Shown piece after piece: positions 16,548 to 21,773 of a DNA stretch of 33,439 nucleotides (positions within the stretch are counted from its first letter, which is position 1; every line of letters begins with the position of its first letter). The stretch lies in NCBI GenBank assembly GCA_026394075.1, contig JAPKYX010000129.1, forward strand, positions 1 through 33,439. Reading direction: 5' to 3'. The notes below the pieces were generated by a model. The model did not search any database, was not told where the DNA came from, and saw only the letters and a list, made by a program, of their open reading frames with translations. The position numbers and the translations under genes were made by a program. Source of the stretch: Acidobacteriota bacterium (lineage in GTDB: Bacteria > Acidobacteriota > Terriglobia > Bryobacterales > Bryobacteraceae).

Positions 16548-18308
16548 TTGAAGACGCTCACCCAGTTCAATCGCATCATTCTGATCGCGCTGCTGTGGTG
16601 CGGCTGGGCCAGCGCGCTTGGCTCCGACGCGCTGGCAGGGCGCGATCTGGCCTTGGTGGGCGCGATGTTGGCCGGGGCGTCACTGCTGAAGTGGCGGCTG
16701 GGCGTGGGCTTGCTGGCGCTGGGTGGGTTGGTGGTGGGCGCGTTCTTTTCCGGGGGGCCGCTGTACCTGGCCTGGGCGCTGCTGTTTGTGATTTTGGCGG
16801 TGCTGGCGCTGATGGGCGGGCAGATTCCGGCCGGTGGTCAACTGCCGCGGGGCGCGGTGTGGCGCTTGGTGACGCTGGCCTTCTCGATGACGTTCGGCAT
16901 CGTGCTGCTGGGCGGGCTGCTGTTCTTCCTGCTGCCGCGCACGGCCCGCACGGCCTATCAGCACTTCGCTCCGCGCCAGATGCTGGTGGGCGGCTTTGGC
17001 AATCAAGTGCTGCTGGGCCGATTGGCGGATATCAAGCGGCGGACGACGCCCGTGCTGCACGTCCGGGCGTTTGATTCTGATGGGCGCGTGCCGCCGCTGA
17101 AGTGGCGCGGTACTGCGTTGCGCGAATTTGACGGACGCCGCTGGTGGTCTCCCCCGGAGCGGGGCCGAGCGCTCTACCCGGAGCAAGGCCTGATCCGCGT
17201 GGCGGACGACGCCCAGCGCTGGCGGGCGGGCAAGCGTTTCGCCTACGAGGTCCACCAGCAGTACGTGGCGGCCGATGTGCTGTTTATTGCCGGTACTCCC
17301 GAGTTTGTGCAGACCAGTGTCGTCCCCTTGTGGCGGACTTCGGAAGGGGCGCTGCGGACCGGCCTGGCCAATCAGGATGGGGTTCGTTTTGGCGTGAATA
17401 GCTTTCTCAATGGAGCGCTTCTGGAGGTGCCGCCGCTGGGCGCCGAGACGCGGCTGGAGTACTTGAAGCTGCCTCCGCTAGACCCGCGGGTGATCGCCCT
17501 GGCGCGCCAATTGAAAACTCCGGCGGCCATTGAGAACTACCTGCGTACGCAGTTTGCTTACACACTGGATGGCGTGGGCTCCCCGGTGGATGATCCGCTG
17601 GCCCATTTTCTATTTGAGCGCCGGGCGGGGCATTGCGAGTATTTCGCTTCGGCCATGGCGGCCATGCTGCGCGCCGTGGACGTGCCATCCCGGGTGATCA
17701 CCGGCTTCCAGGGTGGTGAGTTCAACCCGTACTCCAAGTGGACGGTCCTGCGTGCCTCCGATGCTCACGCCTGGGTGGAGGCCTTTATTGAAGGCCGCGG
17801 CTGGGTGACGTTTGACCCGACGCCCGCTGATCCGAACCCGGTGCCGGTGACGTGGAGCTGGATGTACATGGATGCGCTCGATACCTATTGGCGGGACTGG
17901 GTGCTGAGCTACACGCTCGATCAGCAATTGACGCTGGCCGCTCGCCTGGATGGCTGGCGGCTGGATTTCTCGACCGAATGGGCCGGGCGGGCACCTTGGA
18001 TGGCGCTGGGCGCTGGTGGCGCGATTGCGGCGATGTTGCTGCTGTGGCGCATGCTGCCCGCCTGGAAGCGACGCCGCCAACCGGAGACTGAGGCCGCTCG
18101 ACTGTATGCCGAAATGCTGGGCCAACTGCGCCGTCGAGGAGTCGAGAAGCCGGCCTGGATGACCCCGGCCGAGTTTGCCGCCCATCTGCCGGACACGGCG
18201 TGGCGGCCGGCGGCATTGCAGATTACGGAGCTCTACACCGGCATGCGCTGGAGCCGGGAGCGCCCGGGGGCGGGTCCGGCCATCCGGCAGTTGCTTAAAC
18301 AGCTTTAA
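16548..18308 (+). CDS. TgpA-type membrane transglutaminase-like protein
   Basis: This 586-residue inner-membrane protein has several N-terminal membrane segments (about residues 7-25, 28-65, 70-90 and 105-130). A large periplasmic domain with the transglutaminase-like fold follows, then a further membrane segment (about 483-503) and a cytoplasmic C-terminal DUF4129-like tail. The catalytic Cys-His-Asp triad is intact: Cys363 (RRAGHCEYFASAM), His407 (ASDAHAWVEAF) and Asp423 (VTFDPTPADP). In the TgpA family the usual partners are a MoxR ATPase and a DUF58 protein; neither is adjacent, and a lipoprotein gene precedes it instead. The physiological substrate is unknown. The start is TTG at 16548 with AGGGG 7-11 nt upstream. 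The last 14 bp overlap the end of trpD on the opposite strand. Confidence 0.88.
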   Translation: MKTLTQFNRIILIALLWCGWASALGSDALAGRDLALVGAMLAGASLLKWRLGVGLLALGGLVVGAFFSGGPLYLAWALLFVILAVLALMGGQIPAGGQLPRGAVWRLVTLAFSMTFGIVLLGGLLFFLLPRTARTAYQHFAPRQMLVGGFGNQVLLGRLADIKRRTTPVLHVRAFDSDGRVPPLKWRGTALREFDGRRWWSPPERGRALYPEQGLIRVADDAQRWRAGKRFAYEVHQQYVAADVLFIAGTPEFVQTSVVPLWRTSEGALRTGLANQDGVRFGVNSFLNGALLEVPPLGAETRLEYLKLPPLDPRVIALARQLKTPAAIENYLRTQFAYTLDGVGSPVDDPLAHFLFERRAGHCEYFASAMAAMLRAVDVPSRVITGFQGGEFNPYSKWTVLRASDAHAWVEAFIEGRGWVTFDPTPADPNPVPVTWSWMYMDALDTYWRDWVLSYTLDQQLTLAARLDGWRLDFSTEWAGRAPWMALGAGGAIAAMLLLWRMLPAWKRRRQPETEAARLYAEMLGQLRRRGVEKPAWMTPAEFAAHLPDTAWRPAALQITELYTGMRWSRERPGAGPAIRQLLKQL

Positions 18309-19281
18309 GTTGATCCACTTTGGCCCGGGCCGCGCCGGAATCAATCGCCGCCGCCGCTTGCGCCATGCCATCCAGCCAGTTCGCCGCCGCCCCGGCGGTC
18401 ACGAGCGCGGCAGCCGAGTTCACCAGCACGATGTCGCGCCATGCGCCCGGTGCGCCACCCAGAACCGCGTGCGCCGCAGCTAGCGGATCGCCCCGCAGCG
18501 CCTCGATGGTGGCGCGCGGTACGCCGAAGTCCTCGGGGGTGAGCGTGAACTGCTCGCCACCCACCCGCCAGGCGGTCGTGGGTCCAGTGGTGGTGATCTC
18601 GTCCAGGCCATCGGAGCCATGCACCACCAGGCCCTGCTTGAGGCCCAACCGGTGCAGACTTTCGGCCATCAGTGCAGCTGCCTGAAGCGTGGGCGCACCC
18701 ACTACTTGCGCCCTTGCGCCCGCCGGGTTGGTCAGCGGACCCAGGAGGTTAAACGCCGTCCGCATCCGCAGTTCCTGCCGCGCCGCTGACGCATGTTTCA
18801 TGGCCGGATGGATGGCTGGGGCGAACAGGAAGCCGATGCCTACCTGCTCAATCGCCCGCGCGGATTCCTCGGGGCTCATGTCGATGCGGACGCCCAGGGC
18901 CTCCATCAGGTCGGCGCTGCCGAAGCGCGAAGAGACGCTGCGATTGCCGTGCTTGGCCACGGCCACTCCCGCCCCCGCCACCACGAAGGCGGCGATGGTG
19001 GAGATGTTGATGGTCCCGCTGGCATCGCCGCCGGTGCCGCAGGTGTCCACCAGCGGTCCGTCGGTGCGCACCCTCACGCGGTTGGCCTTGCCCCGCATCA
19101 CGCGGGCGAACCCGGTGAGCTCATCCGCGGTCTCCCCCTTGGTCTTCAAAGCGGCCAGAAACGCGGCGATTTGGGGGGTGGAAGCCTGGCCGTCCAGGAT
19201 GAACTGCATGGCCTGCTGGGCTTCCAGCTCAGAAAGTGATTCGCGCGCGGTGAGTTTGGTCAGGTAGGGGAGCAGTGGCAT
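18295..19281 (-). CDS. trpD: Anthranilate phosphoribosyltransferase
   Basis: This 328-residue enzyme transfers phosphoribosyl from PRPP to anthranilate, the second committed step of tryptophan biosynthesis. The diagnostic motifs are CGTGGDASGTINIST (81-95, PRPP binding), KHGNRSVSSRFGSADLMEALG (110-130, in two parts), GPLTNPAGA in the anthranilate site region, and GSDGLDEIT for the metal-binding acidic pair. The length is typical. No other trp gene is nearby, so it is separated from the pathway cluster. The ATG at 19281 has no Shine-Dalgarno sequence; a TAGAAT hexamer ends six bases upstream. It diverges from sucC across 19 bp, and its 3' end overlaps the transglutaminase gene by 14 bp. Confidence 0.95.
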   Translation of the reverse strand: MPLLPYLTKLTARESLSELEAQQAMQFILDGQASTPQIAAFLAALKTKGETADELTGFARVMRGKANRVRVRTDGPLVDTCGTGGDASGTINISTIAAFVVAGAGVAVAKHGNRSVSSRFGSADLMEALGVRIDMSPEESARAIEQVGIGFLFAPAIHPAMKHASAARQELRMRTAFNLLGPLTNPAGARAQVVGAPTLQAAALMAESLHRLGLKQGLVVHGSDGLDEITTTGPTTAWRVGGEQFTLTPEDFGVPRATIEALRGDPLAAAHAVLGGAPGAWRDIVLVNSAAALVTAGAAANWLDGMAQAAAAIDSGAARAKVDQLKAV

Positions 19282-19283
19282 GT

Positions 19284-19293
19284 TAGAATTCTA
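19284..19293. promoter_or_regulatory. Palindromic -10 element shared by trpD and sucC
   Basis: TAGAATTCTA is a perfect 10-bp palindrome in the 19 bp between the trpD and sucC start codons, so TAGAAT appears as a -10-like hexamer on both strands. For trpD the hexamer ends six bases before the ATG; for sucC it ends 11 bases before the ATG. Transcripts in both directions would be leaderless or have a leader of about 5 nt. Neither gene has a Shine-Dalgarno sequence. No good -35 is visible for either direction. Bidirectional promoters formed by symmetric -10 sequences are known in bacteria; this case is inferred. Confidence 0.45.
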
Positions 19294-19300
19294 GTTTCCG

Positions 19301-20458
19301 ATGAAAATCCATGAGTATCAGGCCAAGGGTCTTTTGGCCAAGTACAGCGTCCCTGTGCCCCGGGGCGAGGTGTGCTTTACACCGGACGAGGCGGAGTTGG
19401 CAGCCAAGGCTCTTGGCGGGAAGGTAGTCGTCAAGGCGCAAATCCACGCCGGCGGCCGCGGCAAGGGTGGCGGCGTCAAGCTGGCCCATTCCGTGGAAGA
19501 CGCGGTGGAGCGCACCAAGCAGATCCTGGGCATGACGCTGATCACGCACCAGACCGGGCCCGAAGGCCGCCTGGTGAAGCGCGTGTTGGTGGAAGAACAG
19601 CTGCCCATTGCCAAAGAATTCTATCTTGGCATTACGCTGGACCGGGCGACCGGCAAGAACGTCGTCATGGCGTCCAGCGAAGGCGGCGTCGAGATCGAGG
19701 AAGTGGCCGCCCACAGCCCGGAAAAGATTCTGAAGGAACCGCTTGAGCCCGGCCTGGGCCTGGGAGCGTACCAAGCCCGCAAGCTGGCGTTTGGCATCGG
19801 CATTCCCGCAGCCAGCGTCAACTCAGCCGTCGCGACCATGCAGGCGCTTGTCAAGGCTTACGACGCCTACGATTGTTCACTGGCCGAGATCAACCCGTTG
19901 ATCCTGACCTCCGATGGCCGCGTGGTGGCGCTGGACGCCAAGATCACGCTGGACGACAACGCCCTGTTCCGTCACAAGGACCTGCTGGAACTGCGGGACT
20001 TTGAAGAAGAAGATCCGCTGGAAGTGGAAGCCAGCAAGTTCTCGCTTAACTACATCAAGCTGGACGGCAACGTCGCTTGCATGGTGAACGGCGCGGGTTT
20101 GGCGATGGCCACCATGGACATCATCAAGTACGCGGGCGGCAGCCCGGCCAACTTCCTGGATGTCGGCGGCGGCGCCAATGCCGATCAGATCAAGAATGCA
20201 TTCCGCATTCTGCTGTCTGACCCCAGCGTGAAGGCCGTGCTGATCAATATCTTTGGCGGCATTCTGCGCTGTGACGTGCTGGCGACGGGCGTCGTCAATG
20301 CGGCGCGGGAACTGGGCTTCAAGATCCCGGTGGTGGTGCGCATGGAAGGCACCAACGTCGCAGAGGGCAAGAAGATTCTGGTTGAGAGCGGGTTCAACTT
20401 TATGGTGGCCGATGGCATGAAGGACGCCGCGGAGAAAGTCGTGGCGGTGGCCAAATAA
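19301..20458 (+). CDS. sucC: Succinate-CoA ligase, beta subunit
   Basis: This 385-residue subunit contains the ATP-grasp domain. With SucD it converts succinyl-CoA and ADP or GDP plus phosphate to succinate and NTP in the TCA cycle. It starts with the family block [19 protein letters not shown]. Then come [18 protein letters not shown] (nucleotide-binding loop, about 43-60), AEINPLI with the metal-binding Glu/Asn, [35 protein letters not shown], and [10 protein letters not shown] with [11 protein letters not shown], which contacts the alpha subunit. The length is normal. sucD follows after one base. The gene lacks a Shine-Dalgarno sequence. Confidence 0.96.
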
Positions 20459-20459
20459 C

Positions 20460-21332
20460 ATGAGCGTTCTTGTTGATCAAAATACTCGCCTGATCGTTCA
20501 GGGCTTTACCGGCCGCGAAGGCACGTTCCACGCCACGCAAGCGATCGCTTATGGCACGCAGGTGGTGGGCGGCGTCACGCCCGGCAAGGGTGGCTCGACC
20601 CATCTGGACCGGCCCGTGTTCGACACCGTGGCCGACGCCGCGAAGGCTACTGGTGCCAACGCCAGTGTGATCTTCGTGCCGCCTCCGTTTGCCGCCGACG
20701 CCATCATGGAAGCGGTGGATGCGGAGCTGCCGCTGGTGGTCTGCATCACCGAAGGCATTCCGGCCAATGACATGACCAAGGTCTGGTCCTTCATGCGCGG
20801 CAAGAAGACGCGCCTGATCGGCCCCAACTGCCCGGGTGTCATCTCGCCCGGCAAGTGCAAGATCGGCATCATGCCCGCGCACATCCACTTGCCCGGCAAC
20901 GTCGGCGTGGTTTCGCGCTCCGGCACCTTGACCTATGAAGCCGTCGGTCAGCTGACCAAGCTGGGCATCGGCCAGTCCACCTGCATCGGCATCGGTGGTG
21001 ACCCGATCATCGGCACCAACTTTGTCGACGCCCTGACGCTGTTCAACGAAGACCCGGACACGCACGGCATCATCATGATTGGTGAGATCGGTGGCAGTGC
21101 GGAAGAGACTGCCGCCGCGTTCGTCAAAGCCAATGTGAAGAAGCCGGTGGTGGGCTTCATTTGCGGACAAACCGCGCCTCCTGGCCGCCGCATGGGCCAC
21201 GCCGGTGCCATCATCTCTGGTGGCTCGGGCAAGGCATCGGACAAGATGGCGGCCATGACCGAAGCGGGCATCAGTGTCTGTGTGTCGCCCGCCGACTTGG
21301 GCGCCACCCTCGCCCAGCGGATGGGCCTCTAG
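20460..21332 (+). CDS. sucD: Succinate-CoA ligase, alpha subunit
   Basis: This 290-residue subunit binds CoA and carries the phosphorylated histidine. The Rossmann-type N-terminal domain holds [19 protein letters not shown] and [11 protein letters not shown], the CoA-binding region. [20 protein letters not shown] is the next conserved block. His247 in [14 protein letters not shown] is the active-site histidine phosphorylated during catalysis. The length is typical. The start codon lies one base after the sucC stop, so the two subunits are translationally coupled. ndk follows 27 bp downstream, and its product interconverts the nucleotide made by this enzyme. Confidence 0.96.
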
Positions 21333-21359: not shown

Positions 21360-21773
21360 ATGTCGCTAACTTTCGGAATTATCAAGCCCGACGCAGTCGC
21401 TGCGGGCAATGCGGGCAAGATTCTTGCTCTGATTGAAGCCAACGGATTCAAGTTGCGCGCCGTGCGCATGACCAAGCTGGCCAAGGACGAAGCCGAGGGC
21501 TTCTACGCGGTCCACCAGGGAAAGCCGTTCTTTGAGGGACTGGTCGAGTTCATGACGTCCGGCCCGTGCATCCTGCTGTGCCTGGAAAAAGAGAACGCTT
21601 TCGCTGAATGGCGCAAGCTGATGGGCGCCACCAACCCGGCCAACGCCGATGAGGGCACCATCCGCAAGCTGTTCGCCGAATCGATCGGCAAGAACGCCGC
21701 CCACGGTTCAGATTCGGAAGAGAACGCCGCCATTGAGCTGGCGTGGTTCTTCCGCGCCTACGAACTGGCGTAA
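21360..21773 (+). CDS. ndk: Nucleoside diphosphate kinase
   Basis: This 137-residue enzyme equilibrates nucleoside di- and triphosphates through a phosphohistidine. The motifs include TFGIIKPDAV at the N-terminus, FEGLVEFMTSGPCILLCLE, and the C-terminal KNAAHGSDSEENAAIELAWFF with the active-site His115. The length is normal. An A/G-rich stretch (AAGAAGAAAAGAG) precedes the ATG and serves as the ribosome binding site. It lies 27 bp after sucD on the same strand, so it is probably co-expressed with the TCA-cycle ligase whose NTP product it distributes. Confidence 0.96.
   Translation: MSLTFGIIKPDAVAAGNAGKILALIEANGFKLRAVRMTKLAKDEAEGFYAVHQGKPFFEGLVEFMTSGPCILLCLEKENAFAEWRKLMGATNPANADEGTIRKLFAESIGKNAAHGSDSEENAAIELAWFFRAYELA

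What the first reader, a model, noticed from the sequence alone, without database searches (positions are those of the whole stretch)
19282..19300. A 19-bp divergent gap with a perfectly palindromic -10 between trpD and sucC
TAGAATTCTA offers the same hexamer to both strands, and neither gene has a ribosome binding site. If functional, one symmetric element would drive tryptophan and TCA-cycle genes in opposite directions, with leaderless or near-leaderless mRNAs.
Basis: partly seen in the sequence, partly recalled or inferred. Interest (0 to 1): 0.55.

Follow-up and report, generated by a model that had tools for sequence, protein, structure and literature searches.

The report
Two-way promoter between trpD and sucC
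In a bacterium related to Acidobacteria, a 19-base gap between a tryptophan gene and an energy-metabolism gene most likely holds a single promoter element read in both directions, which seems to have arisen when two older, separate, face-to-face promoters were squeezed together.

Summary
In detail: 19 bp separate the start codons of divergent trpD and sucC, TAGAATTCTA is a perfect 10-bp palindrome, and no Shine-Dalgarno core precedes either gene. The junction is not a chance one: 84 of 110 genomes examined (own included) have divergent trpD/sucC within 400 bp. In the window's family, 55 of 65 such junctions carry G-N-TANNNT directly after the complement of the trpD start codon, an extended -10 pointing at sucC whose TG overlaps that start codon. 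The trpD -10 usually sits farther right on the other strand (TGnTANNNT in 29 of those 55, 22 of them 32-39 nt upstream of trpD), so the two promoters face each other. In the window's genus the gap is 18-19 bp and the trpD -10 overlaps the sucC -10, 11-12 nt before the trpD ATG. In samples from two genomes of the genus, TANNNT is strongly enriched 12 nt before start codons, the mark of leaderless genes. Perfect symmetry is not kept in the two congeners, but TANNNT on both strands is. Best reading: a bidirectional promoter, trpD leaderless, sucC nearly so. A new member of a known kind with an instructive evolutionary series. No transcription start data exist here.

The parts
19282..19300 (.). 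19-bp intergenic gap between the two start codons
   Evidence: an 18-19 bp gap in the three genomes of the genus
19284..19293 (.). perfect 10-bp palindrome TAGAATTCTA, containing the two overlapping -10 hexamers
19281..19289 (+). extended -10 of sucC, TGnTAGAAT; its T is the complement of the A of the trpD start codon
   Evidence: G-N-TANNNT at this exact place in 55 of 65 family junctions; TANNNT within 70 nt of sucC in 26 of 28 genomes with no trpD within 400 bp, TGnTANNNT in 14 of 28
19288..19293 (-). -10 hexamer of trpD, TAGAAT, first T 12 nt upstream of the ATG
   Evidence: TANNNT at 11-12 nt in all three genus members; enrichment at 12 nt in samples of two of them
19281..19281 (-). predicted trpD transcription start, on the A of ATG (leaderless)
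   Evidence: inference: 7 nt after the hexamer; not measured
19294..19298 (+). predicted sucC transcription start region, leader about 3-7 nt
   Evidence: inference: 5-9 nt after the hexamer; not measured
18295..19281 (-). trpD, anthranilate phosphoribosyltransferase
   Evidence: TIGR01245, 372.5 bits against cut-off 199
19301..20458 (+). sucC, ADP-forming succinate-CoA ligase subunit beta
   Evidence: NF001913, 568.5 bits against cut-off 370
20460..21332 (+). sucD, succinate-CoA ligase subunit alpha, probably cotranscribed with sucC
   Evidence: NF004230; one base between the two ORFs
21360..21773 (+). ndk, nucleoside diphosphate kinase, probably the same operon
   Evidence: PF00334; 27 bases after sucD

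Best explanation
The gap is a bidirectional promoter. RNA polymerase binds in one of two opposite orientations on overlapping -10 hexamers (TAGAAT on each strand) without a recognisable -35. Rightward, an extended -10 (TGnTAGAAT), whose TG overlaps the complement of the trpD start codon, starts sucC-sucD-ndk a few bases before the sucC ATG. Leftward, the other TAGAAT starts trpD on the A of its ATG, giving a leaderless mRNA. The predicted starts lie 15 bp apart on opposite strands, so the two polymerases exclude each other. Ancestrally the two genes had separate, face-to-face -10s in a gap of about 50 bp; in this genus the gap shortened, the old trpD -10 was lost, and a new one formed on top of the sucC -10. 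Shown: gene order, conservation of the sucC element, TANNNT on both strands in the genus, enrichment of the leaderless spacing. Inferred: promoter activity, start sites, leaderless translation, mutual exclusion, direction of the evolutionary change.
For: Divergent trpD/sucC within 400 bp in 84 of 110 genomes. In the family, TANNNT starts at gap position 3 in 55 of 65 junctions, against at most 8 at any other position from -30 to 59, all 55 with G at position 1 and a free base at position 2, the grammar of an extended -10. The element follows sucC: in 28 genomes with no trpD within 400 bp of sucC, 26 have TANNNT and 14 TGnTANNNT within 70 nt, against TGnTANNNT within 60 nt in 19 of 370 sampled genes (10.8 expected on shuffling); the five trpD genes that I had away from sucC lack G-N-TANNNT at the start codon. 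On the trpD strand, TGnTANNNT is present in 29 of 55, 22 of these 29 at 32-39 nt, and one of the five trpD genes away from sucC (G013) still has TGCTAGCCT at 35 nt. In the genus the trpD-strand TANNNT is at 12, 12 and 11 nt. TANNNT at exactly 12 nt occurs before 22 of 370 sampled starts against 2.5 expected, p 3e-14 (two of the 22 are the trpD genes in question); 2 of the 22 have a Shine-Dalgarno core. A published in-silico survey found leaderless signals in 3 of 3 Acidobacteria genomes, mean 13.3% of genes (PMC3160421, passages).
Against: No transcription start data. No -35 on either strand. Predicted sucC starts at the optimal distance fall on T residues (19295-19297), not purines. The trpD-strand hexamer in the genus lacks the TG extension seen in relatives. 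Perfect symmetry is broken in both congeners. Conservation of the gap inside the genus alone is not strong: one change in 19 between G000 and G001 against 16-21% change at fourfold sites, 7-17% by chance. The choice of trpD hexamer where no TGn was present used a distance preference that I set, and two junctions (G090, G132) have no TANNNT on that strand at all. Of the trpD genes away from sucC, G010, G016 and G033 show no TGnTANNNT within 80 nt.
Confidence: 0.62

Rival explanations
1. Only sucC has a promoter here. The symmetric trpD-side hexamer is coincidental, and trpD is transcribed from a promoter inside sucC or at a very low level.
For: The sucC-side element is far better conserved than the trpD-side one; the trpD-side hexamer has no TG extension and no -35.
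Against: All three genus members keep TANNNT 11-12 nt before trpD although bases between differ, G001 having the full consensus TATAAT; the 12-nt spacing is enriched in the sampled genomes; two other compact lineages (six g5 genomes with a 22-bp gap, and G015) also have a trpD-side TANNNT inside the gap.
Confidence: 0.22
2. The palindrome is the operator of a regulator that controls both genes.
For: Dyad symmetry between divergent genes is typical of operators (general knowledge); six g5 genomes have a 16-bp near-palindrome in the same gap, unchanged except one base in G103 although G200 differs from the others at 44-78% of fourfold sites.
Against: TAGAATTCTA occurs once in its genome and not in two congeners; the g5 16-mer occurs once per genome in those six, so no regulon by exact match; the two palindromes differ in sequence, but both place a TA-N3-T hexamer on each strand. 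Degenerate or single-site operators are not excluded.
Confidence: 0.08
3. The AT-rich element is a translation signal of trpD (an unstructured stretch before the start codon), not a promoter.
For: It abuts the trpD start codon in most of the family. In G033, where trpD lies away from sucC, a TATAA stretch is still found a few bases before the likely trpD ATG, though not in the G-N-TANNNT register.
Against: The element in its register follows sucC, not trpD, when the genes are apart (only five trpD cases, two with uncertain starts); the conserved pattern TG-n-TA-n3-T with a free third base fits an extended -10.
Confidence: 0.05
4. Cloning or assembly artefact (the palindrome contains the EcoRI site GAATTC).
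For: GAATTC is a common linker sequence (general knowledge).
Against: Both congeners have near-identical gaps with the same flanking genes and without GAATTC; 84 of 110 genomes keep the gene order.
Confidence: 0.01

Closest known systems
Bidirectional promoters caused by -10 symmetry (Warman, Grainger and colleagues; PMC12825309 abstract and introduction read, PMC10268837 passages read; the 2021 founding paper is not held)
   Same: Overlapping -10 elements on opposite strands, predicted divergent starts 15 bp apart (their definition: 7-25 bp), and polymerases that cannot bind both ways at once.
   Different: Their commonest spacings are 18, 10 and 23 bp; 15 is in the range but not one of these. 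Here both products would be mRNAs of metabolic genes and at least one is predicted leaderless. Starts are not measured.
TA-led (leaderless) genes in bacteria (PMC3160421, passages) and ORF-adjacent -10 motifs in Deinococcus-Thermus (PMC12340547, abstract and one results section)
   Same: TANNNT with its first T about 12 nt before the start codon and no Shine-Dalgarno sequence: trpD fits exactly.
   Different: sucC has the hexamer 17 nt upstream (leader about 5 nt); in the parts that I read, those studies do not treat one hexamer pair serving two divergent genes.
Face-to-face overlapping promoters of divergent genes (general knowledge, recalled)
   Same: The arrangement predicted in 24 of the 29 junctions that have TGnTANNNT on the trpD strand: each gene's -10 on the far side of the gap (from the distances).
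   Different: In the window's genus the order is collapsed: the hexamers overlap and the predicted starts diverge.

Membership tests
Bidirectional promoter (Warman et al.) | -10 elements on opposite strands that overlap or are reciprocal | tested here: met
   TAGAAT at 19284-19289 (+) and 19293-19288 (-); TANNNT on both strands in all three genus members
Bidirectional promoter (Warman et al.) | divergent transcription starts 7-25 bp apart | not testable with these tools
   predicted 15 bp from hexamer positions; no RNA data
Bidirectional promoter (Warman et al.) | commonest geometry, positions -7 and -11 reciprocal (TANNNTA, 18 bp between starts) | tested here: not met
   the window has TAGAATTCTA, a different register; a preference in the papers, not a requirement
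Leaderless (TA-led) gene: trpD | TANNNT about 12 nt upstream of the start codon | tested here: met
   exactly 12 nt; spacing enriched in samples of two genomes of the genus
Leaderless (TA-led) gene: trpD | no Shine-Dalgarno sequence | tested here: met
   sequence; family-wide 6 of 65 trpD have a core
Leaderless (TA-led) gene: trpD | mRNA 5' end on the start codon | not testable with these tools
   needs 5'-end mapping
Leaderless (TA-led) gene: sucC | TANNNT about 12 nt upstream | tested here: not met
   17 nt upstream; short leader of about 5 nt predicted
Operator of a divergent regulon | further copies elsewhere in the genome | tested here: not met
   exact 10-mer once in G000, none in G001 or G002; degenerate copies not searched

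The most novel reading that the evidence does not exclude
One ancient divergent junction shows how bidirectional promoters are born: two face-to-face -10s, the sucC one anchored to the trpD start codon across a family, have been pushed together by gap shortening at least twice (18-19 bp in this genus; 21-24 bp in genus g5 and G015), ending in symmetric or overlapping -10s that start leaderless or near-leaderless mRNAs and make tryptophan synthesis and the TCA step compete for polymerase.
Probability: 0.4. Interest if true: 0.6.

Novelty: new member of a known kind. Interest (0 to 1): 0.45.

Why it matters
Bidirectional promoters are reported as common, but how they arise was not treated in the parts of the papers that I read. 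This junction gives a graded natural series around the same two genes (gaps of 18 to 180 bp in 65 genomes) that could be moved into a two-way reporter. It also suggests a start codon doubling as part of the opposite gene's promoter, and it ties leaderless translation, which frees a gene from needing a leader, to extreme gap shortening.

Tried and rejected
Palindrome as conserved feature: rejected in its strict form, since G001 has TAGAATTATA and G002 TAGAATCTA (arms TAGA/TCTA kept around one base), and only 4 of 84 gaps hold any even palindrome of 10 bp or more. Operator: no other exact copies. Artefact at an EcoRI site: contradicted by relatives. RNA family or tRNA in the window: none at the tools' thresholds.

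A related idea, one TANNNTA serving two leaderless genes whose start codons are 17 bp apart, was tested in 61 genomes by pattern with ATG on both sides. My hand counts from the outputs: spacer N5, 50 matches against 31 for the control pattern; N4, 11 against 43; N6, 33 against 31; N7, 27 against 40. The peak at the leaderless spacing is suggestive only, since frame and stop-codon effects differ with spacing. Of the 50 N5 matches 30 were returned as loci, and 12 of these 30 have open frames of 80 aa or more on both sides; there is no such check for the control.

Literature: (search listings only, except the papers named in the report) showed me no paper on this junction or on one hexamer pair serving two leaderless divergent genes; only the listed rows were seen, and one search was swamped by words beginning with 'succ'.

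Full report
OBSERVATION. The sequence is as described. The complement of the trpD start codon is CAT at 19279-19281, followed by GTTAGAATTCTAGTTTCCG (19282-19300) and the sucC ATG at 19301. Both genes are firmly identified. TAGAATTCTA at 19284-19293 is a perfect 10-bp palindrome, unique in the window and in the genome. There is no Shine-Dalgarno core before either gene (read), and no consensus -35/-10 pair on either strand. sucC is followed by sucD and ndk on the same strand. A convergent ORF (16548-18308, plus, transglutaminase-like) overlaps the end of trpD by 14 bases, so trpD is probably transcribed alone (inference).

THE JUNCTION IS OLD. In 61 genomes (own and 60 relatives), TrpD and SucC were searched separately; each was found in 59. 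I left 11 of the 61 out of the junction count because those calls showed the genes absent, fragmentary, on different contigs or kilobases apart (G008, G013, G020, G022, G033, G036, G037, G039, G054, G058, G060). To the remaining 50 I added the 60 best-scoring further sucC matches from a search of 200 family members, so 110 of the 224 genomes seen were examined. In 84 of 110 the two genes are divergent and within 400 bp; 26 are not; counting the 11 left out as misses it is 84 of 121. Of the 84, 65 are in the window's family (gaps 18-180 bp, median 50) and 19 are outside it (84-160 bp). Start codons were assigned by a script from the alignment to the window's TrpD, so some gap lengths are uncertain. 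The best named matches to TrpD are Acidobacteria metagenome-assembled genomes (L002, L003, L005, L006, L054: 55-59% identical); the window's genome itself is unnamed.

THE sucC ELEMENT. In 55 of the 65 family junctions the bases after the trpD CAT read G-N-TA-NNN-T, TANNNT starting at gap position 3; no other position from -30 to 59 has more than 8. In those 55, position 2 is free (A12 C12 G7 T24), and of the three middle bases the first leans to T (37), the second to A (46), the third is mixed. The G follows the T of CAT, giving TG-n-TANNNT, an extended -10 pointing at sucC whose TG depends on the trpD start codon. Ten junctions do not fit (G012, G021, G023, G024, G029, G137, G172, G185, G215, G220); by eye, all of these except G029 and G185 show TGnTANNNT or TATANT a few bases away or have an uncertain trpD start. 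The genomes are related, so no p-value is given. To ask which gene the element serves, I looked at 28 genomes in which the stretch held shows no trpD within 400 bp of sucC (for G036 only 222 nt upstream are held). TANNNT lies within 70 nt of sucC in 26 and TGnTANNNT in 14, while 19 of 370 sampled genes have TGnTANNNT within 60 nt (10.8 expected on shuffling). The five trpD genes that I had away from sucC do not have G-N-TANNNT at the start codon; the starts of G016 and G033 are uncertain, and G033 has a TATAA stretch nearby in another register. It is therefore most likely a sucC promoter element.

THE trpD ELEMENT. On the other strand, 29 of the 55 junctions have TGnTANNNT (for example TGCTAGGAT or TGTTAGTAT); 22 of these 29 lie 32-39 nt upstream of trpD. 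In G013, where sucC lies 3.8 kb away, trpD still has TGCTAGCCT at 35 nt; G036 has TGGTAACGT at 21 nt; G010, G016 and G033 have none within 80 nt. With starts 7 nt after each hexamer, the two promoters face each other in 24 of the 29. In short gaps the order changes: 31-33 bp (G025, G113, G142), hexamer at 22 nt; six g5 genomes (22 bp), at 18 nt with an alternative at 11 nt; G015 (21 bp), at 17 nt with an alternative at 22; the window's genus, at 12, 12 and 11 nt. In the genus the trpD hexamer overlaps the sucC hexamer: TAGAAT in G000, TATAAT in G001, TAGATT in G002. The first 19 bases of the gap of G014 (53 bp), which the tree puts near the genus, align to the window's gap without insertions, 14 of 19 identical, as if the right part carrying the old trpD -10 had been deleted (inference).

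ONE EVENT OR SEVERAL. A tree of joined SucC and TrpD (62 genomes, 720 columns; G002 absent because its trpD is cut) places G000 and G001 beside G014, G007, G125, G168 and G179 (gaps 49-53; support 0.879), and g5 with G015 (0.895) in another group whose sister (G095, G134, G156) has gaps of 120-121 (support 1.0). Of ten g5 genomes examined, six have 22 bp, two 24 bp with a GTG start, and two were given 48 bp by the script with a TTG start but would also have 24 bp with a GTG start. Several deep nodes are weak (0.33-0.56), so at least two shortenings are likely, not proven.

CONSTRAINT. In the six g5 genomes with a 22-bp gap, the gap is identical in five and has one change in the sixth, although G200 differs from the others at 44-51% (sucC) and 68-78% (trpD) of fourfold sites. 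Longer gaps are also nearly unchanged (G090/G132; G125/G168/G179), so constraint is not special to symmetric gaps. In the window's genus divergence is lower (16-26% for sucC) and conservation of the gap is not decisive by itself (7-17% chance for one or no change between G000 and G001). The differences (C to A in G001; a one-base deletion and G to T in G002) all leave TA-N3-T on both strands.

LEADERLESS GENES. In 127 ORF starts from 190 kb of the own genome plus the window, and 243 from 400 kb of G001 (a simple ORF caller, ORFs of 150 aa or more, start taken by rule), TANNNT is found at exactly 12 nt before the start in 8 and 14, against 1.0 and 1.5 expected (together 22 of 370, p 3e-14). trpD of the window and of G001 are among the 22. 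At 17 nt, the sucC spacing, there are 10 of 370 against 2.5 (p 3e-4, one of several distances looked at). A Shine-Dalgarno core at -18..-4 is present in 37 of 127 and 71 of 243, so led genes exist too; in the 65 family junctions it is present in 10 for sucC and 6 for trpD. Zheng et al. reported leaderless signals in 3 of 3 Acidobacteria genomes, mean 13.3% of genes (PMC3160421, passages).

MECHANISM. The simplest reading is a bidirectional promoter as described for E. [quoted passage not shown] In that work basal activity was too low for competition, which appeared when one direction was substantially activated. Applied here, strong sucC transcription would be expected to depress trpD; this is inference. 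Predicted starts are 15 bp apart, inside the 7-25 bp definition (PMC10268837, passages) but not at the commonest 18, 10 or 23.

VERDICT. Perfect symmetry is a lineage detail, not the conserved principle. It is a new member of a known kind; the evolutionary series is the interesting part.

Noticed in passing
L254 centre (G000:C56:33830-33852) and L255 (G001:C5:321995-322017): Another place in the window's genome where CAT-N5-TANNNTA-N5-ATG separates divergent ORFs, of 239 and 263 aa: one 7-bp element at the leaderless spacing for both. In G001 the forward ORF is only 17 aa.
   Followed up: partly
G000 and G001 samples (L196-L235): Among the 22 starts with TANNNT at 12 nt are two reverse-complement pairs (one in G000 with ATG and TTG starts, one in G001 with ATG on both sides): again one element or overlapping pair for two divergent starts.
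   Followed up: no
L144, L276, L277, L278, L283, L297 (genus g5): A 22-bp trpD/sucC gap with the near-palindrome TAAACTTTAGAGTTTA (perfect in G103, TAAACTTTAAAGTTTA), one TAAACT hexamer on each strand, almost strictly conserved.
   Followed up: partly
L176, L178-L188 (outside the family, same order): trpD/sucC gaps of 88-106 bp share a GGTACGATC motif on the trpD strand and a TATATT or TATAGT (TAAAAT in L176) on the sucC strand: the same face-to-face layout with other sequences (read by eye).
   Followed up: no
upstream of sucC in L192, L194, L273, L287, L288, L291, L294: Where trpD is not beside sucC, seven of 28 genomes have TANNNT (TATATT, TAAACT or TACACT) 18-21 nt before sucC, a predicted leader of 6-9 nt, so near-leaderless sucC is not confined to the window's genus.
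   Followed up: no
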